Source: Loxodes magnus (taxonomy: Eukaryota > Ciliophora > Karyorelictea > Loxodida > Loxodidae). From it: a stretch of 64,000 nt of DNA. The position numbers and the translations under genes are program-made. The stretch covers positions 1 to 64,000 of the forward strand of contig CAMPDV010002038.1 of the NCBI GenBank assembly GCA_946699065.1, in the 5' to 3' direction. A model generated the notes under the pieces. It did no database searches. It was not told where the DNA came from and was given only the letters and a program-made list of their open reading frames with translations. This document shows positions 1 to 64,000 of the stretch, piece after piece; positions within the stretch are counted from its first letter, which is position 1, and each line of letters opens with the position of its first letter.

Positions 1-1125
1 ATTCAAATTAAATGGATTTTATATTAAATGGTAAAATATTTAATTTCTTCTAAATATTTTAGAATAAAAGTTATTTTTAAGAAAACATATTCTGATAAAA
101 ATTTGGTTAATTAACACATTATATAAAAAAATGATTTAGTTAAAAAAGCTTAAAAGTAGAATAAGAAGAAGAATAGCATAAATTAAAAATATCTAGTATT
201 ATAAAAAATATCTATATATATAAAATTTTTATAATTATTAAAAAAATAGTAGATATAAAATTTTAATTTATAGTAAATGAAAATTTAAATAACCTTAGCA
301 AAATATAAATAAGCATAAAATTATCTAATAAGTAAAAGTAAAATATCCAAATAACTGTATATAAAGAATAGTTTTAATAAAGAAAATACTAAAATAAAGA
401 TAATAAAGATATTATAGAATTAAAAATTTTAATAAAATTAAGGTACCATATCATATATATGACTTGCAGTTTATTTTTAGTACCTATTAGAAGCTTATTA
501 ATTTAATTCTACTTAATAATTTTAACTATTAGTAATAAAAATTGATGCAGCTTTAATTAAGTAAAATTTAAATAGTATAGAAAAGAAGCAAACCTTATTA
601 GAATCTATTGATTATAAATACAACAAATCAATAAAAGTAAAGATATCTTTAATATATAAATTAAGGGTAAATGTTAATGAAGCCAAAGTTATTATATCAA
701 ATATTGCTTTCAATTAAAATAATCAAAACTTTTTTTTGTCTTTAGTAAAAATAAAGGTATAAGTATTAATACTTTTTGTGCAGGAAACTTCCATAATGAT
801 GAAGGAATTATATAAATAGGGAGAAAATAAAAAAATAGGAATATATATAAAAATTTCTTAATTATCTTAAGCTTAAAAGCTTTTTCATTAACTTACATTA
901 TTTATTAAAAAGTTGTCTAGAAAGAGAAACAATCCTACTATCTAAATACTCATAAAGTGTTCTTATAAACTATAATATGTTTAAGAAATAATTAATTTTA
1001 TTAAAAGACAAAAGAACAATCAGAACTAGTTATTATTTAGTTTAAATACATTTTATTTTATAAAAGAAAGAAAATTAAAAAACATGATTAAAGATTTTTA
1101 AATAAATAAGTATAAGAAAAAAATT
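1..1125 (+). other. A-rich leader before gene A, no gene seen
   Basis: Very AT-rich stretch without a recognisable coding signal. Its second half (about 420-1,190) is related to 25,180-25,960, the leader of A', so the leader was duplicated together with the gene. Copies are at 28,951-30,075 and 59,561-60,680. Confidence 0.6.
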
Positions 1126-1189
1126 AAAAATTATAATGGAAAGGTAAAAAAATAATGTAAAGGGTAAATAAAGACTTAATTATTTTAAT
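1126..1189 (+). promoter_or_regulatory. Conserved block before gene A start
   Basis: A block of about 65 bp directly before the ATG is kept in all seven copies of the A family on + (also before 4,735, 25,964, 30,139, 33,659, 56,580 and 60,744). It reads roughly ATAATGGAAAGGTAAAAA, then AAAGGRTAAATAAAGAC, then TTAATTATTTTAAT. The surrounding leaders differ in length, so this is likely promoter or 5' UTR sequence; the function is inferred only from conservation. Confidence 0.5.
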
Positions 1190-4100
1190 ATGAAGATACT
1201 GAAAATCATATTTTGAATTTTTTATGCTTTATTTTTCTTTGCATAGAATGATAATTTCTTTTTATTTTAGATAATGCTCTTTCATTTTTTCGCTTTTATT
1301 AAAGTTTTCTATTGCAGTATTTTCAATATTTAATAAAAGAGAATGCAAAATTGACTAATGAGAGATACTTCAGCACTTCCTTGTTTTTTTATAAAGATGG
1401 ATTTTTTATAATTTAGTTTATATTCCTGGTTTAAATAATTTATTATCTGTTTCCTTAAACGACTGTAAAAAAGATTTTTCTTATTTTATTAAAAATGTAT
1501 AGAAATGTAATTATTTATTTAATAAAAGTATATAATTGAATGAAATTTTTGTATTATTTATTTTAAATTTTGTATTCAATTTTAATAGAATAAATCCTTT
1601 TTTAAGTGCTTAAGGAAATGTTTTAATTAATTTTAATTATCTTTAGTAAATTTTACTCTGCTTAGAATAGTACAACTATAAAGCTTTTAAATGGTTACTC
1701 TATTATTTAATGAGTGTTTTATGCAAATCTTAATCCTTCAATTAAATATACATTGAAGATTAAAAGTTATGTTCATAGATTAAATTTAGATTTTATGATT
1801 AAGACATTGCTTTTCTACTTCTTTTTGCAATCTCTTTAGATTTTTTAATCCAGTAAGATGAGAATGCATTTGATTTAATCCGCTTTTAGAAAGATGAAAC
1901 TTAAGGAACTAAAATTATACAGATTGGATATTTGCTGTTCGTGTACTTTGATTTTCTTAGAAATATTAAAGTATTTTGTTTGATTTTTGATAAGAGAGTT
2001 CAATTTAACTTTCGTTAGGTTTTTATATAAAACTTAGAGCCTTTTTGTCTTAGTTAATTTCTTTCACTTGTGAAAGCTAAAAAAACTCTAAACTATTATA
2101 GATTCCTCAGTACAGCTATAAATGATACTGGTAATTAAAAAGATCTTAAGTGATATGTTATAGCAAAAAAGAAGTCTTTGATAGTAGCAAGCTAATGAGT
2201 GAAGGAAAAGTAATCCATTTACTTAGTTAAAAATGCAAAAATATGACTTGACAAATGTAAGCTAAATTTAAGAAATCAAAATTAAACCTAAGCATACTAA
2301 AAGTAATCCTCAAGCCAACACTATTCAATTATATAGTTGATAAAGTTTCAATTAGATAGTTTATAGATATCTAACTTGCTAGGAATAAGAAAATTCTCTA
2401 ATAAAGTTTGAATTATTCCAAGATTAAGATTAAAAGGAAAAAAGACAAGTTGTTGATTCTATTATTAGAACAAAATCTATAAAGATTGAGAATCATATTT
2501 ATAACATATGAGAGTCAAATCACTACATCTAGACAAGAAGTTAGACTATAATTAAAATTTATGTATGAGAGTATCACTTAGAAAGATCTGCAAGATATTC
2601 CTAGATATAATAGTCAAAGTATAAAGTTTTTGATTGAACAATTTTACAAGTAAAACTGAATAATATTAAGGATGAAAAAAGAATAATATTCGAATATCAA
2701 GAATAGAGAACCAAGAAAAATTAAATAAAGCTTTACAAAACAAAAATAATGAAAAATAGAAAAAAATAGAAATGAAAGGTTCGAGTACTCGGAGTATGTC
2801 AGAAAATAAATAAATGTTAAAGCAATTTAACATTAGATATAAAAAATTAAAAGCAAATTAAGAGTTTAGAAATAATAAATAATCTAATATAGATAGAAAT
2901 AGAATTAAATAAATTTGAGGAAAGAGAATCGCTCCAAAAGAAACTTTTTAAAAAGCTATGTATCATTTAAAATTAAATATCCTACAAATTAAACACATAG
3001 CACAGAATTATTTTTAAAATATAAATAGATAAAGTTCTGAACAAAACTATTAAGAAAATCTTAGATAATCTAATGAACAGATTATAAAACTTTTGAGATA
3101 AGTTAAAAATTTATGAAAGAAAGGGCAATTAATATTTATAGTTAAAGTGAAATAAACAAAATTTTTATAAAGCATAGCTAAAATTAAAAACCTATAGAAC
3201 ATATAACAAATATAAATTCACATAATAAGCAAATGCAAGTAAATCAAAATTTAAAAGTAATAAAGGCAGGATTTTATCAAGAAAACATTTCTTAAATGAA
3301 AAATGAAATACTTGGTAAGATTATTAAGGATATATCAAAATTTAACCTTTTTAAAGTGAATGTTATTAGACAATCATTTAGCGTTATTAAATTAGAAATA
3401 GAAATTATTTAAGCTATATTAGAGTCTATAAAAAAAATTTGAAGCGCTTAGTAAAAAAATTATGAAAAAGACTATTTGAAGTAATGATGATTACTTTTTT
3501 AGGAAAAAAGAAGATTATAAAAATGCCATAAACTTATCTAAATTTAATCTTACCTAAGATTAGACAGTAGAGATAATTAAATAGCCAAAAAGAATTTTAC
3601 AGTCGATTAGCAATTAAACTATAATCAGATCAACTATGGAAATCCAGAAATTATAAATTTTTTAAAAATAGGATTAGAATCTTATCACTTAGAGTTTAGT
3701 CAAAGCAATATAATAATTTAAGAGTAATTCGAATTTCATAATCTAAAGATTCAAGTTAGTTGATAAAGGAATTTTTATAAAAATTGATAAATTAAGTTAA
3801 TAATAATTTAGAGATTTCATTTCAAAGGATTTAGATATGACTAAAATGAAATAAAATAGCACAAAGTTTAATATAAAGTTTAAAAGGAATAATAATATTA
3901 CTTAGTAAACTAAAATGATTAAACAAGAACTGAAAATAAGAAGCTAAAATATTAGTTATAAAGATTTAAGAATTAAAAAAGAAGAATCATAGAGATATTG
4001 TAAAATTCTGATTTATAGTAAAAATATTTTTAAAATAACAATTAATTCTTATAAAATGAAATAAGTAAAGAGGATTTATAAGATACATATTAGAGAAATA

Positions 4101-4369
4101 ATTAAAGAGAAAACTAAATAAGTTATAAAGGCAAAAAAAAATAAAAATTAAAGTTAAAGAAAGTAAAACGGACAGATAAAAGAAATTAAATAAACTATCA
4201 CAAAATTAGAGAAAATAAAACAACTAATATAAAGTAGGGAATTTTGCAATTAAATTAAAAAATTTAAAAAAATAATAATAAAAAATAAATAGAAATTGAT
4301 TGGTACATAAATGCAAGCTAAGTAGAAAATAGTTTAGAATTTATATTAAATGAAAGAAATAAAATGTAA
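1190..4369 (+). CDS. Gene A1, long protein with hydrophobic N-terminus, unknown family
   Basis: Read with TAA/TAG as Gln and TGA as Trp, the frame of the ATG at 1,190 stays open to an arbitrary end at TAA 4,367 (about 1,060 codons; the frame is arithmetically continuous). The N-terminus (MKILKIIFWIFYALFFFAQN) looks like a signal peptide or first membrane segment, followed by more hydrophobic stretches to about residue 250 and then a Lys/Gln/Asn/Ile-rich body likely to form helices and coiled coils. Support for the frame: compared with B1, codons TGA 2,123 and TAA 2,132 correspond to TGG 5,678 and CAA 5,687, and A1/A2 differences fall often at third positions. In the middle of the gene another frame also looks protein-like, so local frame changes cannot be excluded. 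No domain recognised. The end is a guess based on where similarity among A, B and A' fades. Confidence 0.5.
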
Positions 4370-4671
4370 TTAAAATATTGCCAATAAAAAAAATAAAGAT
4401 ATATTTAATAAAGAATATAATAAAAGTATTACTTTCTTCTTATAAATTAACTTAATAAAAAATTTATAGTTTTAAATAAAAGAAAATATTTTTAAAATTT
4501 AAATAAATAATTTAAAAAAAATAAACTTATAAATTTGGATAATAGTGAATATAGATAGGTTATAATAAGAAACAAAAATGAATATTATATCAAAAATTAT
4601 ATACATTTATATGAAAAAGTGTAAAAGTTGCTTATAAATCTCATAAAAAATTACATAATAGTTCCTAATTA
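4370..4671 (+). other. Spacer between A1 and B1
   Basis: A-rich, no gene seen. A segment near 4,560-4,680 recurs at about 28,300-28,400 and 58,910-59,000 in the spacer after A', joined there to different neighbours, so it is a piece of the 3' flank of this gene family. Confidence 0.5.
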
Positions 4672-4734
4672 AAATTATAATGGAAAGGTAAAAAATATAA
4701 TGTAAAGGATAAATAAAGACTTAATTATTTTAAT

Positions 4735-6990
4735 ATGAAGATACTGAAAATCATATTTTAATTTTTTATGCTTTATTTTTCTTTGCTTAGAATTGCAAAT
4801 TCTTCTTAAAACTTTTTGGATAAATGTTCTATCATTTTTATCGCTTTTACTAATGTTCTCTATTACAGTATCATCTATTTTTAAGAGAGAATGTAAAATT
4901 GACTAATGAGAGACACTTTAGTGTTTCTTTATTCCTTTTATTTATAAAAAATATATTGATTATAATTTAATTTTTATCCCTATTTTAACTAATTTATTTT
5001 CGTTTTATTTCCTTAAACGACTGTAAAAATGATTTTTCTTATTTTATTAAAAATTTATAGAAATTTAATTATTTATTTAACAAAAATATATAATTGAATG
5101 AAATTTTTGTATTATTTATTTTATATTATTTTGGTAGTAATAAATTTAATAGAATTAATCCTTTTTTAAGTGTTTAAGGAAATGTTTTAATTAATTTTAA
5201 TTATCTTTAGTAAATTTTACTCTGCTTAGAATAGTACAACTATAAAGCTTTTAAATGGTTAGTCTATTATTTAATGAGTGTTTTATGCAAATCTTAGAAT
5301 TTTAATAAAATAGATATTGAAAGTTATGTTCATAGATTTAATTTGATTTCTATGATAAAAAACATTTTTTCTACTTTTTGTTTACAATTGTCGGTTTTTT
5401 TAATCCAGTAAGATGATTTTGCATTTTATTAGATTCGCTTTTAGACAGATGAAATTTAAGGAATTAAAATGGGTAAAGATTGGATATTTACTGCTTATGA
5501 GCTTTGACTTTCTTTAGAAAGATTAAGTATTTTGTTTGATTTTTGATGAGAGAGTTCAAGTTAAAAAACTGTAGGTTTTTATATAAACTTAGAGCATTTT
5601 TGTCTTAGTTAGTTTCTTTCATTTGTAAAAGCTGAAAAGCCTCTAAACTATTATAGATTCCTCAGTACAGTTATAAATGGTACTGGCAATGAAAAAGATC
5701 CTTAAGGCATTGTTATATCAAAAAAGAAGTCTTTGATAGAAGCAAGCTAATGAGTGAAGATTCTTTAATCTGTTTACTTAGTTAAAGATGTAAAAATATG
5801 GCTTGACAACTATAAACTTTATTTTAGAAGTTATAAAAACAAGTCTAAGCATACCAAAAGTAATCCTTAAACCAACACAAATCAAATATACAACCAAAAG
5901 ATAAATTTTAAATTAGATAATTTATAGATTCTTAGTTTGTTAGAGCAAGATAACTCCATATCAAAATCTAGAATTATTCCAAGAATAAGATTAAAAGGAA
6001 AAAAATCCAAGTTACTGATTCTTTTATTAGAGCAAAAACTTTAAAGAATTGGAAATAAAATTCTATAACTTATCAAAGGCAAAAAGGTAAACAACTACAT
6101 TTAGATAAGAAGCAAAACTTAATTAAAAGCATTAGTTTATATTTACGTATAAGAATATTACTTAGAAAGACCTAAAAGATTACTTCTAGATATAATAATA
6201 AAACTATAAAGTTTTTGATTGAATGATTTGAGGCAGAACAAAAAGGTTGAATATTAAGAAAAGATAATTAAGAAGAATTAAATAAAACTTTACAAAGCAA
6301 AAACTAATTAAAATAGAAAAATTACAAATGAAAGATCCGAGCACTCAAACACCTAATCTAATAAATAAAAGCAGATTAACTTTATATGTGAAAATATGAA
6401 ATACCAAACTAAGAGTAAATATATAATAGAAATAGAATTAAGTAAATTTGATGAAAGGGAATTGTTCCAACAGAGAAATTTCTTTAGATTATTTAAAATT
6501 AAATAGTCTACAAGATATACACATAAAAATGAATTATTATTAAAATATAAACAGGTAAAATCCTGAAGTAAGCTTATATAATTTAATGAACAAATTAGAA
6601 AACTATTTAGATATGTTAAAAATTTATGAAAGAAACGTAATATTTATAGGTAAAGTGAAATCGGATAAACTTTTTTAAGACATAGTTAAAAACCTGTAGA
6701 ACATCTAACAAATATAAATTAACAAAAAAGGAAAATGTAAGTAAATTAAATCTTAAAAACAATGAAGGAAGAATTTTTAGAAAGAAAACTTTTTATAAGT
6801 AAAAATGAAAGATAAAAGAATACTAACCACTAAAGTATAGATAAGAAAACAACTAGAAAAAGAAGGATTTCTACAAATAAATTAAATTAACCAATTTAAA
6901 AGAGTAAAAAATAATTAATTATAAGGTAAAAAGGATTCGATATCTAAAATCAAGCTAAGGTGAAAATGTTTTAGAGTCTATATTAAATAA
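4735..6990 (+). pseudogene. Gene B1, shortened paralogue of A
   Basis: Starts with the same conserved upstream block and the same first codons as A1, but one base is missing after codon 8 (the run at about 4,759), which takes it out of the frame used in A1 and B2; small compensating indels follow. About 900 bp matching A1 positions 3,290-4,160 are absent, so the protein would lack its third quarter, while the C-terminal motif SQ-GEN-LESILN is kept near 6,950. Codons in shared parts show Trp (TGG) and Gln (CAA) where A1 has TGA and TAA. Probably a decaying copy; the end is estimated. Confidence 0.45.
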
Positions 6991-9045
6991 AAGAAAAAAG
7001 TTTAATAAAGGTCCTATCATTTTAAAAATTATAAAACATATTTATAAGAGTATAAATAAAAAAAGTAGCTTATAATCTAGGATAAAAATGAATATCGATT
7101 ATATATAATAAAAAACATAAATTACATATACTTTAAAAAATTATATAGTAAATAATATATTTGAAAAAGTGTAAAATTGAATATATATCTTATAAAAATC
7201 ACATATAGTTCATAAATAATTCTTTAAAATGTTGTTATGAAAAAGATATTAAATAAAGTAATTGAAAGACAAAAATTTATCTATTAAAAATAAATAAACA
7301 TAACAAATCATAAATATCTAACCAATTTATAAAATTTATTAAGGTTAAAAGTATAAAACATCATTTTATATACATAAGAGTGAAAAAGTAGAAAATAATA
7401 AAATAAATGGTAATTAAAAATATTGATAAAATATATAATTATAAAAAACATTATAAAGAAATAAAAAAGTAAATAATAAAAATATAAGTAAAATTTAAAA
7501 ATTATAAAGTAAAAAAATTTATTAAAATAGTAAAATAAAATAATGCTTAAAAAAGTAAAAATATAAATAATTTAAAATTTATGAAATAAAAAAGTAAATT
7601 CAGAAAGTAAAAAATAAAAAATATGAATAATTTCAAAAATTTAATAGTTTGTGATTGAATGTCAATATATTGAAATATAAAGGATAATAATATTGTTAAT
7701 TTATTAAATACTAGAGCTAAGTAAAAGCTAGAATCCAAGGATTTTAGGATAAAGAGCAAAATATTTAATTTTAATTAAATAATTTAGAATAAAAACTTGG
7801 CTTCAAAAAAAATATTTAGATAAAAGCTTGGCTAATTAACTCATAATAAAAAAGAGAAGCATGATTTAATTAAATATTTAAAAGGTTAAAAATAGTAAAA
7901 TAAGAAGAATAACTTAAAGTAAAAAAAATTTATTATAGAAATAGAAAATAGATATCCTTTAAAATTTGTATCAATACTAAAAAATTATACAATTGCTATC
8001 AAATCTTAATCCATATTAAATGAAAGTTTAAATAAACTTAGCAAAAATATAAATAATAAGTATAGCATTATTTAAAAATAAAAAATTAAAGTAATATAGT
8101 TATTGTACATAAAGGATAATTTTAATAAAAGGATTATAAAAATTAAAGATAATTAAGGAATCAGAGTAATTAAAATTAATTAAATCTAAAAAAATTAGAA
8201 ACATAAAGTTAAATATCAATTAATCTTATCTTAAGGAAAAAGACATTCATTGTTGCAAAGTTATTTTAATCAGAAAATAAAAAACCATGAAAGAAAATCT
8301 CAAAATATTGAAAATTTATTTAAAAAAATTTAAAATATTTTAATCAAAAATACAAAAGTGTACGATTAAAGAATTAAAAATGGATAAAAAATATAAATGA
8401 AATAAATAATGATTTAAATTAAAAAAAATATTTCTGATATAAATATTAAAAATAATTTCCCACTTGAGAAATAAAATCTGAATATGATCAATGTGCTATA
8501 TAAGGGATAAAAAAAGTAAAATATAATTATAAAAAATATTTAGATTTAAAATATGAAATTATCATATAATGCTTAATAAATTTAGAAAAGAAAATATTTT
8601 ACAAAAGTTAAAATTTTTATTTAAAATAATAGTATTTAACTTTTCGAGCTTGTAATTTTTAAATTTTGTAGTAAGATTTTTTTAATATTTTTAATATTCT
8701 GCTTCTTTTATCTTAAATTAGTTTCTTGATTGATTATGCACAAAATTTATTCATCTTATATTTTTTAATAATTTTTAATGAGGTAAAATATAAATTTATT
8801 AATAATAAAAATTTTATTTAAAAATATTTAAACTTTATCTCAAAAAATATTCTAGTTATCAATTTTAGTTATTTTAGCCTAATACTAAAACAACTAAAAT
8901 ATTTTATTAATATTTAAATTATATATTTTTTTTAATTGGTAAAATTTTTCTAGTAGATTAATTACAAAAAGTAAAAATTGTTTTTGTCTTGTAGTGAAGA
9001 AATTTAACTAACTTGGAGTTGTATTAAAATTATAAATCATAATCT
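6991..9045. other. A-rich spacer, no gene seen
   Basis: Up to about 8,640 the + strand is dominated by A with short T-containing words, low in complexity and without codon structure. The part 7,000-8,100 is closely related to 27,260-28,250 in the same unit and to 36,000-37,100 and 57,900-58,900. Relative to unit 2, unit 1 lacks about 40 bp near 7,391 and 250 bp near 8,175. From 8,640 to 9,045 composition is balanced between A and T but nothing is recognisable. Confidence 0.6.
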
Positions 9046-9720
9046 AAAATCTATGTTGTTTCTTGTCAGCCATATAGATCATAATTCCTTTTCCTTATCT
9101 TAGATCTTCTACTCATTATCCTTCATATTTGTTTCCATTTTTATACGTAAATGCTTAATATACATTCTTCTTATCTTTCACTCTCTCTTTGATACAACAC
9201 TTCTTCATTTTACTCATTTTCTAGCGTATTCTAAATTAAAGTATTTTCTTCTTAAGTTTCTTCTTATTTATATCACTAAATATATTCTCTTCTCTCTTAC
9301 TGTGCTTCTATCTTCTTTATACCATTAAATATGGTTTTCTCGTCTTCAGTTTTTATATTAATTTTACAACTAAGTATATTCTTCTCTTCTTCAGTTTCAA
9401 TATATTTGATACACTAAATATATTCTTCTATTTTTCATTTTCTTTCTCTTTTAGAAAATTAATTATATATTTCTCTTCTTAAGCTACTATCTTATGTATA
9501 GCAATTCTTATATTCACTTCCTCTTGCATATAATCTTGTAATTCCTTCAAATTTTGCTCCACATTTTCTAAATTCATTATAAAAGCTTCTTCCTTTTTTC
9601 AACATTTTTACATTTTTTCTAGTAGTAAACACTCTGAAGAATTCTATTATGTCTCTCATTTTTATTCCTTCTCTCAACTCTTATCATTCCACATATGTAT
9701 TTTTGAATTTTTCTATTAAG
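9046..9720 (-). pseudogene. Decayed kinase-MORN fragment
   Basis: On the - strand this carries the tail of a kinase domain (CWKKEEAFIMNLENVEQNL, compare CWKQESDLRMDLENVMQKL in the neighbouring gene), a Glu-rich linker, and a single MORN-like unit at about 9,060-9,160 (KYEGQWVEDLRQGKG). The parts lie in different frames, so at least two frameshifts separate them. The front of the kinase domain is not visible upstream. It is an inverted, degraded relative of the gene at 10,468, with TGA and TAA read as Trp and Gln inside the MORN motif. Confidence 0.65.
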
Positions 9721-10467
9721 CATTTTCAATAATGTGATTACTTTTAAAGCTAGGAGTAAAGTAAATTTTTTTCTGATGTTTGGCTTTTATGTTGAAATAT
9801 TAAGGCTATCTTTTTGCATTTTTAAGTAAAGCTTGCATTGTTTTAGTATGCTATTTGTAAACTTTTAGCCTTTTATAAATTTTATCTTCAGCTGTTTGCA
9901 AAAAGTTTAATAAATTTTTGTTATATGAATTTAAGTTTTTTGTATGCATAGTTTTAAGCTAAATTGATTCATTTTGTACAATGTTTAAAAAAGCTAGATT
10001 AATAGAATAGTCAAGTAGCAATAATTTCATTATTTGTGTATAAATCATTGAGAGATCAGAATTTAAGTGTATTTAATAGTTTTCTAAAAACTAAATTTTC
10101 TTCTTATTTTACAAATTTTTTATTTATACTGAAAAAAAGATGAAAAGTTTATTTTTTTTATTATTTAAAATAAAAAATTATACTTCAAATATAATCTAAG
10201 TTTAAAAAAAAGCAAGTTTAAAGATACAGTTACTGCATTAAAAAATTAATATAAGTTTTCTAAGGTGTTTATTTGTTTTTTTATTGATTTATGATTAAAA
10301 CATCTAATTTTTCTATGTTAAAAGTGGGAAAATTGTCTTTTCTAATTTCGTTCATTTTTAGCAAATAGTATTAAAATATTTTAAAAATCATTTTTCAAAC
10401 TTTTTTTTTAGTAAAAAGAGCTTTTAAATTAGTTTATAAAAAAATAAAATTATAAAATATTTCAAGC
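9721..10467. other. Region between divergent kinase-MORN relic and gene
   Basis: AT-rich. The - strand can be read as a Lys/Gln-rich peptide upstream of the relic, but nothing identifies it and I do not call a gene. It presumably holds the promoter of the kinase-MORN gene; no motif stands out. Copy at 38,957-39,718. Confidence 0.4.
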
Positions 10468-12543: not shown

Positions 12544-13105
12544 AATCTTTTTTATATTACTAGTTTTAATATATAATAATATTAATTATAAATATTAACA
12601 AATTTATTAGTTAACTTAAGTAAGAAAAAAATACATTATAAAAACAATCTTTATTTTTTAATTGTATTTTGATTTAAAAATATCTATCAAGTATTAAAGA
12701 GAAATTCATTTTTGATTACGTAAAATTATATAAGAAAATTATATTAAAAAGAAAAGTGTTAAAGGAATAAGGTTGCAAAGACATTAGTGAGTCTAAAAAA
12801 AGTCTAATTAATTTTGAGATTAATAGTTGAAGATTAAATTAATAAGTTAAATGTATGTAAATAAAAAGTAGTGAAACCTAATCGAGTGATTATTAATATA
12901 TAGTTATGTATGTTTTTTAAGTTTATTAAAGTGTATAAGTTTTGAATTATATATGAAAATAAAATAAAAGAGTTTCAATATTTAGAAATATTGGGACATA
13001 CTTGTAATACTTATAACCTAGGCTATAAATATTGCAAATATGTTAAATATAAAAGTTTTATATTTGTCTATCAATTTTCTCTCTCTCTCTCTTGCTCTGA
13101 TTTTA
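12544..13105. other. Spacer between kinase gene and retroelement
   Basis: No gene seen. It holds the 3' flanks of two convergent genes, the kinase on + and the retroelement on -. A TC microsatellite lies at about 13,077-13,093, directly after the retroelement's end. Copy at 41,795-42,356. Confidence 0.6.
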
Positions 13106-22237: not shown

Positions 22238-22393
22238 TGAAACTTTTTAGTTCTGAACAAAATTTTAAATATTTTCTATAATTTTTTAGCTTTTATTATG
22301 TAATTAATTTAATTATAAGTGGTATTATACCAATGGTAATTAAATAGTCAATAATCAGGACCTAAATAAATTAAAAATAGAAATGATTAGTAA
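22238..22393. promoter_or_regulatory. Short divergent interval between C1 and D1
   Basis: Only 156 bp separate the start codons of gene C (-) and gene D (+), so promoters for both probably lie here. AT-rich, no motif recognised. Nearly identical in unit 2 (52,854-53,009). Confidence 0.4.
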
Positions 22394-25900: not shown

Positions 25901-25963
25901 TAAAATTATAACGGAAAGGTAAAAAAAATAATTTAAAGGATAAATAAAGACTTAATTTTTTAA

Positions 25964-49300: not shown

Positions 49301-49639
49301 TGTTTTCTTTCTTTTAATAATAATCTTAATTATATTCTTTAGTATATCTATTCTCACTATTTTTTATTTTATTCAAATTTTATTATTATTTTTTTATTGA
49401 TTTAATATTTTTTCATTCACTTATTAAATACTTTAGATTGTTTCTAAAAATAATCTTTGTAATTTTTTATCTAATTTGCAAGTTTATTTATTAAAAAATG
49501 TTATTAATTTATGTTTTTAACATCTTTCCTTTTATTTACTATTGATTAGCTTTAATTGTTTGATTTATTTTAAGAAAAGCTTAAATAGTTTGTTTACTCA
49601 CCTATAAATATAATCCATTATATAATGAATTTTTTTAAG

Positions 49640-52600: not shown

Positions 52601-52853
52601 ATTCAAGAAATGTCTTTTTTCTTTTAATTACAGAGAGTTGATTAGTTTCATAAAGGATAAAAAGTGATAAATTAAAATATCTATAAGAAAATAAAAAAGA
52701 AATATTTAAAATAAAATAGAAAAATAAAACTAAAAGCGAAACTTTTAAAATTAAAAATGCTTTTAAGTAATTATTCAAACAAGCTCTCCGGTCTAGAAAT
52801 TTAGAAAAAGTAAAAAAATAAACTTTTTTCGCAAAAAGATTCCAATTACTCAT
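49640..52853 (-). pseudogene. Gene C2, copy of C1 with indels
   Basis: Same start (MSNWNLFAKK at 52,853) and body as C1. A 74-bp insertion at about 52,535-52,608 changes the reading after about 85 residues, and T runs at 51,641-51,645, about 49,981 and about 49,806 are each one base longer than in unit 1. The first two changes together restore the frame of C1, leaving a different stretch of about 300 residues. Which copy has the ancestral reading is not clear. Confidence 0.42.
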
Positions 52854-53009
52854 TGAAACTTTTTAGTTCTGAACAAAATTTTAAATATTTTCTATAATTT
52901 TTTAGCTTTTATTATGTAATTAATTTAATTATAAGTGGTATTATACCAATGGTAATTAAATAGTCAATAATCAGGACCTAAATAAATTAAAAATAGAAAT
53001 GATTAGTAA

Positions 53010-55690
53010 ATGTGAAATTTGTAATAAGATTGGAAACTATTGAGAAATTGTTGGGAGAGAGAAAGAATAGAAAATAAACTAAAAGAAAAGAAAAGATTTG
53101 AAGGAGATGACCTCCATTTTTTCAGCTTTGAATGGCAATATCCGAAAGAAGAAGTTAAGGATTTATGAACTGCTTGAAAAAACCTTGAAATATGAAACCT
53201 GGAGAAGGTAGAAATGCAAGGGGGACTAGTAGTAAGCCAGGGCTGAAGAGAAAACTATTATTTTGATTGTATTGTATTGGGTAAAAAGATTAATATATTA
53301 AAGTATTTTAAATTTAACGATTTGACTTACTTACAATATCTAGAGTTTTACGATAGATTTATAAAAAAAGAAAATGGAATTTTCATATAAAGCAAAAATT
53401 CTAAGAATAAAAAATTTCTTAATAATTAGCAATAATTAACTTCAAACTAACTTAGGCAAGTTCCAAACAAAGTTAATTAATGATTTATTTAAAAAAATGG
53501 ATACTATATTTAAATCAATTATTAGTAAGATAACTACAACAAAATTTTTCCTATTAAGTAAGATTTAAAAAATTAATTTGGTCTTTCGACTTAATAAAGA
53601 AGAAGTCGAGATAAGAAATAAAAATATCAAAAAAAGTTTATCCAATACTATAAAAATTGAGAAGACTTAAACACAAATAGAAATGTAAGAATTATAGAAG
53701 AATGTATAACAGTTTAGTATTAGAGAATTATCATTGTATATAATAATAAATTAAATTCTGGTGATATTGATGCATTTAAACTTCTTTCCTATTAACTTTC
53801 AGAAGTATCTGGAGATTTTTTAAATCGATCTCTTAATTAATGTAACTGTCTTGAAATTCTCAGTCAGTAGTATTAGGCTTTCATCCTATAAATTTGTTCT
53901 GCTTTTAATAGTTTTTTCTTATTATCTTCTTATTTTAATTAGATTTCTTTCTGATGCTAATGTATCTTTCTATTTTTCAATAATTTCCATCAGCGATTGC
54001 AGAGATTATCTTGTATTTTGCAAAAATACACTTTCTTCTTTCTTAGATTTGTTTATTTATCTTCAAGTTTTTCAATCTGATCAATCCTCTTTCAGATCTA
54101 AAAATTAGGCTTGATTTAACTGTTGGCATTTTTCAACTAGCTGCTGTTCTATTTAGATGTCTGATATTTTTGGTTTTAAGTCATAATTATAGAATTATCT
54201 ACTCTGGCGTTGCCTCACATTTTATAAGGCTTGGAATCTCCCCTTTCTTGCGATTTATTCCTTATTTCCATTTATTATTGCTTGATATAGGTCTCCTTTT
54301 CGAGAAGTCAAGAAATTATAGCCTAGACTATTTTAAAAGATTGAAATAACCGTCCTAAATCTTATAATCCCCCTTTCTCCTTGGTAGCATCTAATGCAAG
54401 ATTACTCGCAATGCAGTATACATTGCACCAGATTACCCACTAGTTCTCCTGACAGCAACTGACATCCATATTTTAAGAATATATACAATAAGAATAACAT
54501 TTTCCCAGCAACAAAAGAGAGATTAAAATAAGCATTAAAATTAAACCTAAAACTAATAACTTTTTGGCTCAATCACACAAGAGGTTGATTAACAGATTAC
54601 TAGTTAGAATTTTAATTTAAGTGGGTTCGAATTTTTACTTGGTAGCATCATCAATTTGTATGCTAAGTTTGAAAAGTAAATTGAAGATAGTATAAACTCT
54701 CAGAAGGATAGAAATAATAATAACGAGGCTAATTTAATTTTACATATCTTAAATAACTTAATATATTAAAATTCTTGCGTTTAAAGATAGTTTAATACTG
54801 TTCAGTAATTTTTATGGAATATGAACTTTTACCAGTAATTTTAAACTTTACTGATGTTGAAAATCAAAAGCCCAGTTAATAAGAAACTACTGAAAAAGAA
54901 AGAAAAATAATCAAAAAATTTCAGAATAGATAAACTATGTATAACACAAACTGGTATCTATGAATAAAAACTCTCCGTAAGATCACTTGAACGGTTACAA
55001 TGGTAATCTCCCACTTATTAAAACGACATGATACTCACCAATATTAAAAAAGTATCAGCAAGATTTGGTTGAAATTCCAGGAATTATACAGCTTTATTAA
55101 CTTTAAAAATAATAGAAAATTAAATATGCTATCATAACCTTCAACATAAAAGTAATAATAAATTTAAAAAGCACTTTATAGCAAGAAAATTAGATTCTGG
55201 TTTTGAAGGTAATCTTTTAATAAGATCTAACTGAGTGATGGTTTTTCAGTAAAAATAATAATAATAGTTGATAATATAGAAGCACATAAGTATTTATATC
55301 TACTAACCTAATTTGATTTCCTAATCTTGGAATATAATTAGGATAATTGTAAATTAGATTACTTTGATATATATATTTAGTTATTTAAAATATAAGTATT
55401 TTATAGTACTAAGTATAGTACTATAGTATATATTTAATTGGGTATAATTAATAACGAATTTAACAATAGAACTTTATTATGATATAAAGTGAAATAAACT
55501 TTTATAACTATATATAGAAATTTACTTACTCCAACTTTTAAATTCTAGTAGAATAAGAAAGACTATTCTCTTGGATTATCTTAAAATTTTAATTATCAAC
55601 TTAGAAAGAATCAAACAGGACCAAAATAAATAGTATTTAAAATTGCTTGACTCAACTAAAATTGGTATTAAAATATAAACTAAATCCAAT
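53010..55690 (+). pseudogene. Gene D2, copy of D1 with the intact G run
   Basis: Five G at 53,220-53,224 join the two N-terminal parts of gene D into one frame, giving at least 340 continuous codons (to about 54,080). Further on, two single-base deletions relative to unit 1 at about 54,083 and 54,110 change the frame. Neither unit thus has a full clean copy under my reading. No domain recognised. Confidence 0.45.
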
Positions 55691-56515
55691 TTTAATTTTT
55701 ATAGTTTTGGTAGTCTTTTTTTGCTTTATAATGTAATTTTAGTTTATAGTATAAAGAATAAAACTAAAAGTAAAAATTATATTTTTAGGAGGGATAAATT
55801 AACATTCATTTAACTAAAATTAAGATATCATATCTTCATTTATAAGGCTTACAGGTTAGTTTTAGTACCTATTTAATAATAGAATGTTGTATAGGTTTAA
55901 TAATAACTCTATCTATTTAGAAATAGAAGTAGCTTTAATTAAACTTAAATCCTATAGAAAAAGAGAAAACCTTATTAGAATCTACTGATTATAAATATAA
56001 CAAACCTATAAGAGAAAAAGTATCTTAATATATAAAGCAAAGGCAAATCTTAATTAAGCCAAAGTTATTATAGTAAATATTAAATTTTGCTTTCAATTAA
56101 AATAATCAAAATATTTTAGTCTTAAGTAAAAATAAAGGTATTAGTATTTTTATATTTTATACTTTTTCTACAGCAACATTCTATAAAGATGAAGGAATTA
56201 TATTAGTAACAAAAAAGAGAAAAATGAGAGATATAAAATATCTTACTTATTTAAATGGCATTTTTTCATTAACTTGAATTATTCATTTAAGAGTTAACTA
56301 TAAAGAGAAAAACTTATTTAATCTAAATATTTGTAAGCATCTTAATGGATTTTAAAATGTTTGAGAATTAATAAATTTAATTAAAAGATATAAGAGCAAT
56401 CAGAGTATATGCTATTACTAAGTTAGTGCTAAATAAATGTTTATTTTATAAAAGGATAATAAAATTAAAGAATTATGCTTAATTATTTTTTAAATATTTA
56501 AGTATAAAAAAAATT
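55691..56515 (+). other. Leader before A'2
   Basis: Nearly exact copy of 25,081-25,900; no gene seen. The conserved start block follows at about 56,516-56,579. Confidence 0.5.
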
Positions 56516-56579
56516 TAAAATTATAACGGAAAGGTAAAAAAAATAATTTAAAGGATAAATAAAGACTTAATTTTTTAAT

Positions 56580-57850
56580 ATGAAGTTACTGAAAATCATA
56601 TTATGAATTTTTTATACTTTATTTTTCTTTGTATAGAATAGTAAATTCTTCTTAAAACTTTTGGATAAATGTTCTATCATTTTTATCGCTTTTACTAATG
56701 TTCTCTATTACAGTATCATCTATTTTTAAGAGAGAATGTAAAATTGACTAATGAGAGACACTTTAGTGTATCTTTATTCCTTTTATTTATAAAAAATATA
56801 TTGATTATAATTTAATTTTTATCCCTATTTTAACTAATTTATTTTCGTTTTATTTCCTTAAACGAATGTAAAAATGATTTTTCTTATTTTATTAAAAATT
56901 TATAGAAATTTAATTATTTATTTAACAAAAATATATAATTGAATGAAATTTTTGTATTATTTATTTTAAATTATTTTGGTAGTAATAAATTTAATAGAAT
57001 TAATCCTTTTCTAAGTGCTTAAGGAAATGTTTTAATTAATTTTAATTATCTTTAGTAAATTTTACTCTGCTTAGAATAGTACAACTATAAAGCTTTTAAA
57101 TGGTTAGTCTATTATTTAATGAGTGTTTTATGCAAATCTTAGAATTTTAATAAAATAGATATTGAAAGTTATGTTCATAGATTAAATTTAGATTTCTATG
57201 ATAAAAAACATTTTTTTCTACTTTTTGTTTACAATTGTCGGTTTTTTTAATCCAGTAAGATGATTTTGCATTTTATTTGATTCGCTTTTAGATAGATTAG
57301 CAATAAAAGACCAAAATTTCTAAAATATTTAAAATTAGATTAGAATCTTATCTTTCAGAGTTTATTCATAGTAATATAATAATTGTAGAGTGATTCAAAT
57401 TTCACAATCTAAGGATTCAAGTTAGTTGATAAAGAAATGCTTATAAAAATTGATAGATTAAGCTAATAATAATTAAACAATTTTATTTCGAAGGATTTAG
57501 CTATGGCCAAAATGAAATAACATATCACTAAATTTATATAAACAAAGGAATTATACTGACTTAGTAAAACTAAAAAGATTAAAAAACTGAAAATAGGATT
57601 TTAAATAATTAGTTAGAAATAAAGAAAAAAAGTTAAATTAAAGCCAGCAAAAATGAAAGATAAAAGAATACTAACCACTAAAGTAAAGATAAGAAAACAA
57701 CTAGAAAAAGAAGGATTTCTGCAAATAAATTAAATTAACCAATTTTAAAGAGTAAAATATAATTAATTATAAGATGAAATAGATTCGATATTCAAATTCA
57801 AGTTAAGTAGAAAATGCTTTAGAGTCTAAACTAAATGAAAGTAAAAAAAA
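56580..57850 (+). pseudogene. A'2, internally deleted copy of gene A
   Basis: Same start and same deletion junction (about 57,300) as A'1, with few differences up to about 57,660 and more after it, where the tail resembles the B type. Confidence 0.55.
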
Positions 57851-59560
57851 GTAATAAAGGTCTTATCCTTTTAAAAATTATAAAACATATTTAAAAGACT
57901 ATAAATAAAAATGCTAATATGTAATTAATATTTATTTAATAATATAAATGAACAGATTTAAATAAAAGTAGATATTTATAAAATTTGCACTTATAAATAA
58001 AATAAAGTAGCTTATAATCTTGGATAAAAATGAATATCGATTATATATAATAAAAAACATAAATTGTATATACTTTAAAAAATTATATAGTAAATAATCT
58101 ATTTGAAAAAATGTAAAATTGAATATATATCTTAAGAAAATAACATATAGTTCATAAATAAATAACGCTTTAAATTGTTGTTATGAAAAAGATATTAAAT
58201 AAAATAATTGAAAGACAAAAATATTACTTATTAAAAATAAACATAATTAATCATAAATATCTAACCAATTTATAAAATTTATTAAGGTTAAAGGTATAAA
58301 AACATTATTTTATATATATAAGAGTGTAAATAATAAAAGCAACTTAAATAGTAAATCTAAAACAAAAAAGTAGAAAATAATAAAATAAATGGTAATTAAA
58401 AATATTGATAAAATATATAATTATAAAAAACATTATAAAGAAATAAAAAAGTAAATAATAAAAATATAAGTAAAATTTAAAAATTATAAAGTAAAAAAAT
58501 TTATTAAAATAGTAAAATAAAATAATGCTTAAAAAAGTAAAAATATAAATAATTTAAAATTTATGAAATACAAAAGTAAATTCAGAAAGTAAAAAATAAA
58601 AAATATGAATAATTTCAAAAATTTAATAGTTTGTGATTGAATATCAATATATTGAAATATAAAGGATAATAATATTGTTAATTTATTAAATGCTAGAGTT
58701 AAGAAAAAGCTAGAATTCAAATAAAATGGATTTTATGATAAAGAGCAAAATATTTAACTTCTATTAAATAATTTAGAATAAAAGTTTGGCTAATAAACAT
58801 ATATCATAAAAGAGAAGCATGATTTAGTGCAATATTTAAATGGTTAAAGATAGTTTAATACTGTTTAGTCATTTTTTAGGAATATGAGCTTTTACCAGTA
58901 ATAATAAGAAACAAAAATGAATATTATATCAAAAATTATATACATTTATATGAAAAAGTGTAAAAGTTTATTATAAATCTCATAAAAAATTACATAATAA
59001 TTCCTAATTAAAATAAATAATTCCTTATAATTTTGTTATGCAAAAGATATTAAGCAAATAAAATTATTTTAATGAAAGAACAAAAATATTACCTATAAAA
59101 ATAAACTTAGCCAATCATAAATAAATCAACTAGTATATATAATTTATTACTGATAAAAGAATAAGTTAACTATTTTATATGCCTTATGATATAACAAAAA
59201 ACAAACATGAATAGAAAAGGCTAAATATGAAAAATAGAAAAGAATCTAAAATTAAATAGTAATAAAAAATTTATGATTACTAAATTTATTATAAAGTAAA
59301 CAAAAGTTTACAATAAAATTTAAATTATAATTAAAAAAATTAAAGTTAAAAAAATGTATAAAAATAGTAGAAATAAGAATATTTTATAAAAAAGTAAATT
59401 TTTAAATAATTTAAATTTAAGAAATAAAATTGGAAAGTTTAGAAAATAAATCGTAAAAATAACTAAAAATATTTTATACTTTGTAGTTGAAGATTAATAT
59501 ATAGAAATGCAGAAGATACAATTATCGTTTTATCAAATATTAGAAAGAAAACTAACATTC
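57851..59560. other. A-rich spacer at end of unit 2
   Basis: Copy of 27,241-28,950 with the same mosaic of spacer and gene D fragments (D piece at about 58,847-58,920). No gene seen. Confidence 0.55.
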
Positions 59561-60680
59561 AAAAAAAATTGAATTTATATTAAAAAGCAAAATATTTCAT
59601 TACTTCTAAATATTTTAGAATAAAAGTTATTTTTACAAAAAACATATTCTAATAAATTTTTGGTAATTAGCACATTATAAAAACTTGATTTAGTTAAAAA
59701 AGTTAAAAAGTAGAATAAGAAGAAGAATAGCATAAATTAAAAATATCTAGTATTATAAAAAAATATCTATATATATAAAATTTTTATAATTATTAAAAAA
59801 ATAGTAGGTATAAAATTTTAATTAATAGTAAATGTAAATTTAAATAACCTTAGCAAAATATAAATAAGCATAGAATTATCTAATAAGTAAAAGTAAAATA
59901 TCCAAATAACTGTATATAAAGAATAGTTTTAATAAAGAAAATACTAAAATAAAGATAATAAAGATATTATAGAATTAAAAATTTTAATAAAATTAAGATA
60001 CCATATCATATATATGACTTGCAGTTTATTTTTAGTACCTATTAGAAGCTTATTAATTTAATTCTACTTAATAATTTTAACTATTAGTAATAAAAATTGA
60101 TGCAGCTTTAATTAAGTAAAATTTAAATAGTATAGAAAAGAAGCAAACCTTATTAGAATCTATTGATTATAAATACAACAAATCAATAAAAGTAAAGATA
60201 TCTTTAATATATAAATTAAGGGTAAATGTTAATGAAGCCAAAGTTATTATATCAAATATTGCTTTCAATTAAAATAATCAAAACTTTTTTTTGTCTTTAG
60301 TAAAAATAAAGGTATAAGTATTAATACTTTTTGTGCAGGAAACTTCCATAATGATGAAGGAATTATATAAATAGGGAGAAAATAAAAAAATAGGAATATA
60401 TATAAAAATTTCTTAATTATCTTAAGCTTAAAAGCTTTTTCATTAACTTACATTATTTATTAAAAAGTTGTCTAGAAAGAGAAACAATCCTATAATCTAA
60501 TACTCATAAAGTGTTCTTATAAACTATAATATGTTTAAGAAATAATTAATTTTATTAAAAGACAAAAGAACAATCAGAACTAGTTATTATTTAGTTTAAA
60601 TACATTTTATTTTATAAAAGAAAGAAAATTAAAAAACATGATTAAAGATTTTTAAATAAATAAGTATAAGAAAAAAATTA
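59561..60680 (+). other. A-rich leader before gene A3
   Basis: Copy of 1-1,125; no gene seen. The conserved start block follows at about 60,681-60,743. Confidence 0.6.
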
Positions 60681-60743
60681 AAAATAATAATGGAAAGGTA
60701 AAAAAAATAATTAAAGGGTAAATAAAGACTTAATTATTTTAAT

Positions 60744-63700
60744 ATGAAGATACTGAAAATCATATTTTTAATTTTTTATGCTTTATTTTTCTTTGCATAG
60801 AATGATAAATTCTTTTTATTTTAGATAATGCTCTTTCATTTTTTCGCTTTTATTAAAGTTTTCTATTGCAGTATTTTCTATATTTAATAAAAGAGAATGC
60901 AAAATTGACTAATGAGAGATACTTCAGCACTTCCTTGTTTTTTTATAAAGATGGATTTTTTATAATTTAGTTTATATTCCTGGTTTAAATAATTAATTAT
61001 CTGTTTCCTTAAACGACTGTAAAAAAGATTTTTCTTATTTTATTAAAAATGTATAGAAATGTAATTATTTATTTAATAAAAGTATATAATTGAATGAAAT
61101 TTTTGTATTATTTATTTTAAATTTTGTATCAATTTTAATAGAATAAATCCTTTTTTAAGTGCTTAAGGAAATGTTTTAATTAATTTTAATTATCTTTAGT
61201 AAATTTTACTCTGCTTAGAATAGTACAACTATAAAGCTTTTAAATGGTTAGTCTATTATTTAATGAGTGTTTTATGCAAATCTTAATCCTTCAATTAAAT
61301 ATACATTGAAGATTAAAAGTTATGTTCATAGATTAAATTTAGATTTTATGATTAAGACATTGCTTTTCTACTTCTTTTTGCAATCTCTTTAGATTTTTTA
61401 ATCCAGTAAGATGAGAATGCATTTGATTTAATCCGTTTTTAGAAAGATGAAACTTAAGGAACTAAAATTATACAGATTGGATATTTGCTGTTCGTGTACT
61501 TTGATTTTCTTAGAAAGATTAAAGTATTTTGTTTGATTTTTGATGAGAGAGTTCAATTTAACTTTCGTTAGGTTTTTATATAAAACTTAGAGCATTTTTG
61601 TCTTAGTTAATTTCTTTCACTTGTGAAAGCTAAAAAAACTCTAAACTATTATAGATTCCTCAGTACAGCTATAAATGATACTGGTAATTAAAAAGATCTT
61701 AAGTGATATGTTATAGCAAAAAAGAAGTCTTTGATAGTAGCAAGCTAATGAGTGAAGGAAATGTAATCCATTTACTTAGTTAAAAATGCAAAAATATGAC
61801 TTGACAAATGTAAGCTAAATTTAAGAAGTCAAAAGTAAACCTAAGCATACTAAAAGTAATCCTCAAGCCAACACTATTCAATTATATAGTTGATGAAGTT
61901 TCAATTAGATAATTTATAGATATCTAACTTGCTAGGAATAAGAAAATTCTCTAATAAAGTTTGAATTATTCCAAGATTAAGATTAAAAGGAAAAAAGACA
62001 AGTTGTTGATTCTACTATTAGAACAAAATCTATAAATATTGGGAATCATATTTATAACATATGAGAGTCAAATCACTACATCTAGACAAGAAGCTAGACT
62101 ATAATTAAAATTTATGTATGAGAGTATCACTTAGAAAGATCTGCAAGATATTCCTAGATATAATAGTCAAACTATAAAGTTTTTGATTGAACAATTTTAC
62201 AAGTAAAACTGAATAATATTAAGGATGAAAAAAGAATAATATTCGAATATGAAGAATAGAGAAACAAGAAAAATTAAATAAAGCTTTACAAAACAAAAAT
62301 AATGAAAAATAGAAAAAAATAGAAATTAAAGATTCGAGTACTTGGAGTATGTCAGAAAATAAATAAATGTTAAAGCAATTTAACATTAGATATAAAAAAT
62401 TAAAAGCAAATTAAGAGTTTAGAAATAATAAATAATCTAATATAGATAGAAATAGAATTAAATAAATTTGAGGAAAGAGAATCGCTCCAAAAGAAACTTT
62501 TTAAAAAGCTATGTATCATTTAAAATTAAATATCCTACAAATTAAACACATAGCACAGAATGATTTTTAAAATATAAATAGATAAAGTTCTGAACAAAAC
62601 TATTAAGAAAATCTTAGATAATCTAATGAACAGATTATAAAACTTTTGAGATAAGTTAAAAATTTATGAAAGAAAGGGCAATTAATATTTATAGTTAAAG
62701 TGAAATAAACAAAATTTTTATAAAGCATAGCTAAAATTAAAAACCTATAGAACATATAACAAATATAAATTCACATAATAAGCAAATGCAAGTAAATCAA
62801 AATTTAAAAGTAATAAAGGCAGGATTTTATCAAGAAAACATTTCTTAAATGAAAAATGAAATACTTGGTAAGATTATTAAGGATATATCAAAATTTAACC
62901 TTTTTAAAGTGAATGTTATTAGACAATCATTTAGCGTTATTAAATTAGAAATAGAAATTATTTAAGCTATATTAGAGTCTATAAAAAAAATTTGAAGCGC
63001 TTAGTAAAAAAATTATGAAAAAGACTATTTGAAGTAATGATGATTACTTTTTTAGGAAAAAAGAAGATTGTAAAAATGCCATAAACTTATCTAAATTTAA
63101 TCTTACCTAAGATTAGACAGTAGAGATAATTAAATAGCCAAAAAGAATTTTACAGTCGATTAGCAATTAAACTATAATCAGATCAACTATGGAAATCCAG
63201 AAATTATAAATTTTTTAAAAATAGGATTAGAATCTTATCACTTAGAGTTTAGTCAAAGCAATATAATAATTTAAGAGTAATTCGAATTTCATAATCTAAA
63301 GATTCAAGTTAGTTGATAAAGGAATTTTTATAAAAATTGATAAATTAAGTTAATAATAATTTAGAGATTTCATTTCAAAGGATTTAGATATGACTAAAAT
63401 GAAATAAAATAGCACAAAGTTTAATATAAAGTTTAAAAGGAATAATAATATTACTTAGTAAACTAAAATGATTAAACAAGAACTGAAAATAAGAAGCTAA
63501 AATATTAGTTATAAAGATTTAAGAATTAAAAAAGAAGAATCATAGAGATATTGTAAAATTCTGATTTATAGTAAAAATATTTTTAAAATAACAATTAATT
63601 CTTATAAAATGAAATAAGTAAAGAGGATTTATAAGATACATATTAGAGAAATAATTAAAGAGAAAACTAAATAAGTTATAAAGGCAAAAAAAAATAAAAA

Positions 63701-63922
63701 TTAAAGTTAAAGAAAGTAAAACGGACAGATAAAAGAAATTAAATAAACTATCACAAAATTAGAGAAAATAAAACAACTAATATAAAGTAGGGAATTTTGC
63801 AATTAAATTAAAAAATTAAAAAAAATAATAATAAAAAATAAATAGAAATTGATTGGTACATAAATGCAAGCTAAGTAGAAAATAGTTTAGAATTTATATT
63901 AAATGAAAGAAATAAAATGTAA
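60744..63922 (+). pseudogene. Gene A3, one-base deletion near residue 130
   Basis: Third copy of gene A with an intact ATG. At about 61,139 one T of the GTATTCAATT found in A1 (about 1,572) is missing. The total length to the end point used for A1 is one base short of a whole number of codons, in agreement. Apart from this it is very similar to A1. Confidence 0.45.
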
Positions 63923-64000
63923 TTAAAATATTGCCAATAAAAAAAATAAAGATATATTTAATAAAGAATATAATAAAAGTATTACTTTCTTCTTATAAAT

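What the first reader, a model, noticed from the sequence alone, without database searches (positions are those of the whole stretch)
1..64000. 29-31 kb multigene unit repeated in tandem at least three times
Seven or more gene-like blocks on both strands recur in the same order with high identity, yet offsets change between blocks because of unit-specific insertions. Arrays with units this large, carrying a kinase gene, a dead retroelement and several copies of an unknown gene family, are not a usual satellite or rDNA pattern. It could be an amplified locus, a germline-limited array or a giant composite element.
Basis: seen in the sequence. Interest (0 to 1): 0.8.

Follow-up and report, generated by a model that had tools for sequence, protein, structure and literature searches.

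The report
Tandem 30-kb kinase gene array
A 29-31 kb block of ciliate DNA carrying one probably working kinase gene, a dead retroelement and decayed repeats stands copied head to tail, most likely by ordinary recombination; it is real and large, but of a familiar kind.

Summary
The repeat is real: unit 1 is 1-28,944, unit 2 28,945-59,556, unit 3 starts at 59,557; blocks are 96.3-99.3% identical, and a reversed-sequence control gave no hit. 28,950 and 59,560 are not junctions, only where base 1 of the window recurs. The genome's size (705.7 Mb) matches the 706-Mbp macronuclear assembly of the ciliate Loxodes magnus, and the kinase gene fits that group's code (TAA/TAG = Gln, TGA = Trp or stop). 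A unit holds one likely working gene (691-aa kinase with 14 MORN repeats), a frame-broken LINE, and four copies of a family without sign of coding. Units recur on other contigs; on 515-kb C186 they end beside other sequence with kinase-MORN relatives. I read it as a chromosomal tandem duplication spread and homogenised by unequal exchange; a nested 5.2-kb module bounded by a 115-bp repeat is a footprint. The 'insertions' are better read as deletions in unit 1. A probe from another kinase locus (C279) also recurs, three of four intervals being 23-26 kb. The assembly merged reads at 96% identity, and C186 and C1513 disagree at the edge, so order and copy number stay uncertain.

The parts
1..28944 (+). 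Unit 1 (28,944 bp; start point arbitrary, set by the window)
28945..59556 (+). Unit 2 (30,612 bp)
59557..64000 (+). Unit 3, first 4.4 kb; continues on contig C2038 to 83,266
10468..12543 (+). Kinase-MORN gene, unit 1: ATG 10,468 to probable stop TGA 12,541; 691 aa with TAA/TAG=Q and TGA=W; PK_Tyr_Ser-Thr 3.2e-58, 14 MORN stretches 2.3e-91
39719..41794 (+). Kinase-MORN gene, unit 2 (start; end worked out from the same 692 codons)
12969..18760 (-). LINE-type non-LTR retroelement copy, unit 1; endonuclease pieces and RVT_1 (1.9e-18) lie in three different frames, so it is broken; copies of 94-98% elsewhere in the genome, many stopping at different points on the 5' side. Edges not exact: low one between 12,969 (end of homology of edge copy Wd) and 13,000 (start of the probe), high one is the end of the probe and of the unit-1 block; the element may go further
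42220..48011 (-). Same LINE copy, unit 2 (edges with the same doubt)
1122..3308 (+). F family copy F1, unit 1; no codon periodicity between units
4667..6810 (+). F family copy F2 (78% to F1)
19976..21758 (-). F family copy F3, inverted (67% to F1)
25136..26682 (+). F family copy F4, partial
30070..32245 (+). F1 of unit 2
33591..35729 (+). F2 of unit 2
50518..52300 (-). F3 of unit 2
55751..57297 (+). F4 of unit 2
60676..62861 (+). F1 of unit 3
4560..4675 (+). About 115-bp direct repeat, first copy; with the one at 28,291 it bounds the 5.24-kb module repeated in tandem at the end of C2745
28291..28405 (+). 115-bp direct repeat, second copy (96.5% to the unit-2 form of the first, 33,486-33,599)
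37139..37377 (.). Segment of about 240 bp kept in unit 2, missing in units 1 and 3; its ends share about 11 bp
48013..49299 (.). Segment of about 1,288 bp kept in unit 2 and the 6 other units read besides, missing only in unit 1
52537..52602 (.). 66-bp segment kept in unit 2 and the 6 other units read besides, missing only in unit 1
9083..9731 (-). Decayed inverted fragment of the kinase-MORN gene (about 70-81% to it)

Best explanation
SHOWN in the assembly: units of 28.9-30.6 kb stand head to tail on C2038; C2745, C4548, C1513 and C186 carry such units too; on the 515-kb contig C186 the units stop beside sequence of other kind; the LINE copy is in all 8 units read there (U1-U3, V1, V2, W1, X1, Y1) but not beside edge copy Wd; units are mosaics of one another. 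INFERRED: a kinase-MORN gene and flanking F repeats at an existing kinase-MORN cluster were duplicated; a LINE landed in one copy; that copy was multiplied by unequal crossing-over between misaligned direct repeats, and the units are kept alike by exchange and gene conversion. The only part with a sign of constraint is the kinase domain, so if the array does anything for the cell it changes dose or variety of a MORN kinase, perhaps a membrane- or cortex-bound signalling protein (recalled view of MORN repeats, not tested). The rest is probably passenger DNA.
For: Tandem order and identity. Anchor: on C186 (515,293 bp, of which I read 460,001-515,293) unit-like sequence begins at about 477.6 kb, after MORN runs and a kinase relative at 466 kb; searches with unit segments found nothing of the unit further left on C186 except kinase relatives at 423-454 kb (hit lists are capped). 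Exchange: the nearest relative of a unit changes along its length, with 1-kb stretches of 0 differences and others of 20-70; a module of about 5.24 kb repeats about 2.7 times at 99.7-99.9% at the end of C2745 and its boundary falls in the 115-bp repeat. LINE before amplification: 98-100% within the array units, mostly 94-96% to longer copies elsewhere. Constraint on the kinase domain: pN/pS 0.26 for U2 against Wd (21 of 161 synonymous, 22 of 649 non-synonymous sites, Fisher p=1e-5), 0.46 U1-Wd (p=0.013), 0.37 U1-U2 (p=0.04). Likely second array: a 3-kb probe from C279 recurs there at 82,209, 149,501, 172,952 (split by an insert), 199,149 and 221,821 at 97-99%.
Against: C2038 and C2745 (read whole) and C4548 (20 of 42 kb read) never leave the array, and C186 and C1513 both end at unit position 3,039, so order and number are unknown. 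The two contigs that show the edge agree only for its last part: C1513 has a further Wd-like copy at 29.4 kb (83% aa), where C186 has at about the matching distance only a 58% kinase; one of them may be misjoined, or they are haplotypes. The assembly used an overlap identity of 96%, so part of the mosaic may be assembler switching, and the nested module sits at a contig end. Of 9 gene copies whose start I read, 4 (V1, W1, X1, Xd) are frameshifted and 5 open. The MORN part shows no clear constraint (pN/pS 0.8, p=0.17), and pairs among U1, U3 and V2 have too few changes to tell (0 synonymous, 0-1 non-synonymous). The periodicity scan alone is weak: 5 of 95 overlapping windows reach p<0.05, about what chance gives; the kinase window is the lowest (6 of 6 variable sites at third positions, p=0.0025, uncorrected). 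C150 and C2497 carry some unit segments at 95-96% beside a kinase 71% alike at DNA level, which duplication of whole units does not explain.
Confidence: 0.8

Rival explanations
1. Assembly artefact: one or a few real copies were strung together or interleaved by the assembler, so the long tandem run on C2038 is partly false.
For: Overlap identity threshold 96%; the paper suspects misassembly of low-complexity repeats; C186 and C1513 end at the same unit position and disagree further left; C1513 and C5792 share the same matches at their starts.
Against: Units differ by up to 3.2% in aligned bases (0% in one pair for one block) and by private deletions; the step from unit position 28,944 to 1 is seen on C2038, C2745, C186, C1513 and C4548. 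A false chain would still need real reads from unit end to unit start.
Confidence: 0.12
2. Extrachromosomal circles of about 30 kb, assembled round and round.
For: C2038 and C2745 hold no other sequence.
Against: On C186 the units are joined to sequence of other kind in a 515-kb contig; distinct units lie side by side, and C1513 holds copies at uneven spacing of about 27-39 kb.
Confidence: 0.04
3. Germline-limited array, absent from the somatic nucleus.
Against: The assembly size equals the published macronuclear one (706 Mbp against 848 for the micronuclear; [quoted passage not shown]
Confidence: 0.02
4. A giant composite mobile element that inserts its own copies.
For: Parts of the unit (F1, 22.7-24.7 kb) are 94-96% alike on contigs where the kinase is only 70-73% alike, so pieces have moved or been converted between loci.
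Against: No mobilisation gene besides the broken LINE in the frames scanned; copies are head to tail; the 40 strong F matches lie on 13 contigs that also carry a unit segment or a kinase match (40 of 93 candidates were scored).
Confidence: 0.02

Closest known systems
Human megasatellites / macrosatellites (PMC2588610; passages seen, one of them in the abstract)
   Same: Large tandem units, some with genes, some with embedded transposable elements, presumably grown by unequal crossing-over, with higher-order structure and deletions in single units
   Different: The largest unit in the passages seen is 12 kb; here 29-31 kb, in a ciliate, and copy number is unmeasured
Tandem gene arrays of Trypanosoma brucei (PMC1855330; passages seen)
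   Same: Tandem genes of a protist, evolving in concert yet variable, with unequal crossing-over and gene conversion both inferred
   Different: Those genes are transcribed polycistronically; here one gene stands in some 30 kb with much DNA that looks non-coding, and transcription is unknown
L. [quoted passage not shown] section read)
   Same: 5-6 kbp consensus, RVT_1 plus Exo_endo_phos_2, most copies incomplete
   Different: I could not compare with their consensus, so which family this copy belongs to is not known
rDNA tandem arrays of L. magnus (PMC11441545; section read)
   Same: Head-to-tail chromosomal arrays
   Different: No RNA family in the window at Rfam gathering score and no tRNA by ARAGORN

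Membership tests
Gene-bearing tandem array (macrosatellite / tandem segmental duplication) | Large units repeated head to tail with high identity | tested here: met
   in the assembly as given
Gene-bearing tandem array (macrosatellite / tandem segmental duplication) | Lies in a chromosome | tested here: met
   C186: units joined to other sequence; one edge only, and C1513 disagrees with it further left
Gene-bearing tandem array (macrosatellite / tandem segmental duplication) | Footprints of unequal exchange or conversion between units | tested here: met
   Mosaic units and nested module; assembler switching not excluded
Gene-bearing tandem array (macrosatellite / tandem segmental duplication) | Variable copy number between individuals | not testable with these tools
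   No reads or second strain
Karyorelict code (NCBI table 27) | TAA and TAG = Gln, TGA = Trp inside genes and stop at the end | tested here: met
   One gene tested. TGA where kinases have Trp (recalled motif, e.g. before MAPE); stop TGA 12,541 with no in-frame TGA in the 40 codons and no TAA/TAG in the 24 codons before it; rule seen
TKL-like protein kinase | Kinase domain with its signature motifs | tested here: met
   Pfam 3.2e-58. PDB: 907 sequences at E 1e-20 or better, 60 shown, led by an EGFR chain, a Src-Abl ancestor, CTR1, TAK1 and B-raf, so the label TKL is my inference. Array copies U1-U3, V1, V2, Y1 read HSD where Wd and Xd read HRD; activity not tested
LINE retrotransposon | Endonuclease plus reverse transcriptase, copies cut at the 5' side in the genome | tested here: met
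Working LINE | Unbroken reading frames | tested here: not met
   Two endonuclease pieces and the RT lie in three different frames
Germline-limited DNA of ciliates | Absent from the macronucleus | tested here: inconclusive
Giant composite mobile element | Own integrase/transposase and defined ends | tested here: inconclusive
   None in the frames scanned. Not scanned in unit 1: minus strand 1-13,000; plus strand 9,000-10,000 and about 12,600-22,000; one of three plus frames of 10,000-12,600; both strands after 25,200. Ends not sought

The most novel reading that the evidence does not exclude
L. magnus carries several independent giant-unit tandem arrays built round one fast-diverging MORN-kinase family, so that array growth is this family's regular way of making new variants (for instance copies with HSD in place of the HRD catalytic motif): a diversity system in an unedited ciliate genome.
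Probability: 0.12. Interest if true: 0.55.

Novelty: new member of a known kind. Interest (0 to 1): 0.3.

Why it matters
If the species name holds, a ciliate that does not edit its genome keeps, in its somatic assembly, the kind of large, element-bearing, gene-carrying tandem array known from ordinary eukaryotes. It gives a marked locus (LINE insertion, private deletions, nested module) for measuring how such arrays change in a species whose somatic nuclei are made anew from germline copies even in asexual division. It also warns that reading by the standard or the common ciliate code makes a likely live gene look dead.

Tried and rejected
Standard-code open frames of 150 aa or more: none, which led to code 6 and then to TGA=W. 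RNA families at gathering score and tRNAs: none. F family as genes: rejected because none of the windows over F1-F4 reaches p<0.05 for codon periodicity (lowest 0.058) and few indels are multiples of three; Pfam found nothing on the plus strand of 1-9,000. In that scan 5 of 95 overlapping windows reach p<0.05 (8,167; 8,467; 8,767; 10,567; 27,987), about chance level, so it is used against the F genes only with that caution. Open frame at 22.7-24.5 kb: no Pfam family above its cut-off, no periodicity; parts of it match many places. The first Pfam scan missed the RT in a long translation; a shorter piece gave RVT_1, while three other LINE pieces gave nothing, one of them, as I later saw, in a frame without the endonuclease. 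Paper searches on MORN kinases, Loxodes gene duplication, tandem segmental duplication and megasatellites listed no description of this array; the L. magnus paper's main text holds neither 'kinase' nor 'MORN'. Of that paper I saw the abstract, sections 6, 7, 8, 11 and 25 and passages, not its supplements.
Full report
OBSERVATION. Comparing the window with itself gave collinear blocks at offsets 28,944, 29,211, 30,540 and 30,616 covering all of unit 1, with 96.3-99.3% identity, plus the first 4.4 kb of a third unit at offset 59,556 (98.6%). The reversed unit gave 0 hits, so low complexity at about 21% G+C does not explain it. The window is G000:C2038:1-64000; the contig is 83,266 bp and ends inside unit 3.

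WHICH ORGANISM. G000 has 705,730,643 bases in 7,843 contigs. The L. magnus macronuclear assembly is given as 706 Mbp (section read). The kinase frame has TGA where kinases have Trp (recalled motif) and TAA/TAG read as Gln, as in NCBI table 27, which the paper describes for Loxodes, with coding UGA and UAA depleted for about 20 codons before the stop (passages). The species name rests on size and code; no tool named the genome.

CONTENT OF A UNIT. (1) A kinase-MORN gene, 691 codons and stop, 10,468-12,543 (Pfam PK_Tyr_Ser-Thr 3.2e-58, 14 MORN stretches). Of nine copies with the start in fetched sequence, U1, U2, U3, V2 and edge copy Wd are open to the same stop; V1, W1, X1 and Xd are frameshifted, truly or by assembly error; a tenth, Y1, was only partly read. 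Between U2 and Wd the kinase domain has pN/pS 0.26 (p=1e-5), U1-Wd 0.46 (p=0.013), U1-U2 0.37 (p=0.04); the MORN part of U2-Wd 0.8 (p=0.17). These pairs are not independent, and U1, U3 and V2 are almost the same sequence. (2) A LINE copy on the minus strand from about 12,969 to at least 18,760. Endonuclease (5.5e-6, and 6.6e-5 in another frame) and RVT_1 (1.9e-18) lie in three different frames. It is 98-100% alike within the units and mostly 94-96% alike to longer dispersed copies, many ending at different points on the 5' side (lists capped). (3) Four F copies (F1, F2, inverted F3, partial F4). Between units they show no codon periodicity and mostly frame-breaking indels. In the genome 41 matches were reported (40 of 93 first-look candidates scored), 40 of them strong, on 13 contigs that also carry a unit segment or a kinase match. 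(4) A decayed inverted kinase-MORN fragment at about 9.1-9.7 kb.

OTHER COPIES. C2745 (73,907 bp) holds two full units and more, C4548 (42,216 bp) two copies of the 22.7-24.7 kb segment, C1513 (103,989 bp) three full and one cut copy of the 8.2-11 kb segment about 27-39 kb apart, and C186 (515,293 bp) two, near its right end. C696 has one copy, 87-98% by segment. C1177, C1576, C4248, C161 and C2497 hold F segments (80-98% by segment) and C150 the 22.7-24.7 kb segment (95%), beside a kinase only 71-73% alike at DNA level. That pieces of the unit are more alike than the gene beside them is not explained by simple duplication; conversion between loci is my guess.

MECHANISM. Three facts point to unequal exchange. 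The nearest relative of each unit changes along its length. At the end of C2745 a module of about 5.24 kb (unit positions 28,291-28,944 plus 1-4,675) is repeated about 2.7 times at 99.7-99.9%, and its boundary lies in a stretch of 115 bp that matches both ends (the two are 96.5% alike when 28,291 is compared with the unit-2 copy). Unit 1 lacks three segments that others have, one with about 11 bp of shared ends. Against this: the assembly used an overlap identity of 96%, so the mosaic may in part be artefact, and the module lies at a contig end.

THE EDGE. On C186, of which I read 460,001-515,293, the last unit-like part (477.6-482.7 kb) is copy Wd: 91% alike to unit 7,865-12,968, the homology ending about where the LINE begins, then about 2.9 kb without a hit of over 300 bp and long MORN runs. 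Wd and Xd read HRD in the catalytic loop; the array copies readable there (U1, U2, U3, V1, V2, Y1) read HSD. Further kinase relatives lie at 423, 433, 442, 454 and 466 kb of C186. C1513 is collinear with C186 over Wd/Xd and W1/X1, so these may be alleles, though W1 and X1 are 98.3-99.9% alike by block; further left the two contigs disagree, C1513 having another Wd-like copy at 29.4 kb. So the array seems to have grown at an older cluster of such genes, but its edge is not settled.

A HABIT OF THE FAMILY? The kinase domain gave 138 scored matches in the genome out of 4,127 first-look candidates. A 3-kb probe from C279 recurs on that contig at 97-99% at five places (one split by an insert), 67.3, 23.5, 26.2 and 22.7 kb apart, and twice on C1138 (one split) 38.2 kb apart. 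I tested the 3-kb probe only, not whole units.

COMPARISON AND VERDICT. The nearest known kinds are the megasatellite with embedded transposable elements (PMC2588610, passages) and the tandem gene arrays of T. brucei (PMC1855330, passages). The finding is real and well seen; its reading as an amplified locus holds, germline limitation and composite element gain no support. New member of a known kind; interest 0.3. On checking, confidence in the best explanation was set at 0.8 instead of 0.82, and the artefact rival at 0.12 instead of 0.1, for the disagreement of C186 and C1513.

Noticed in passing
C2745:59,633-73,907 (in L016, L017, L030): Nested tandem module of about 5.24 kb at 99.7-99.9%, about 2.7 copies up to the contig end.
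   Followed up: yes
C279:82,209-224,823 and C1138; L031: A second likely kinase array: a 3-kb probe recurs at 97-99%, three of four intervals on C279 being 22.7-26.2 kb.
   Followed up: partly
C1177: 53,294 and 107,772 (F2), about 60,070 and 114,545 (kinase): Same order of F2 and kinase repeated about 54.5 kb apart; F2 87-88% to this one, kinase 72-73% at DNA level.
   Followed up: no
window 22,700-24,700: This segment is 95-96% alike on C696, C2497 and C150, while the 18,760-19,760 segment is 88% on C696, 75% on C2497 and not among the 24 scored matches for C150; parts of it match many places.
   Followed up: no
window about 10,837 (kinase catalytic loop): HSD in the array copies readable there against HRD in edge copies Wd and Xd.
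   Followed up: partly
C186:467,935-474,695 (L018, L019): Long runs of the 138-bp MORN repeat beside the array, 86-90% alike to those of the unit.
   Followed up: no
C1513:103,989 and C186:515,293; starts of C1513 and C5792: Contig ends that coincide in unit position or in matches, suggesting alleles or duplicate contigs.
   Followed up: no
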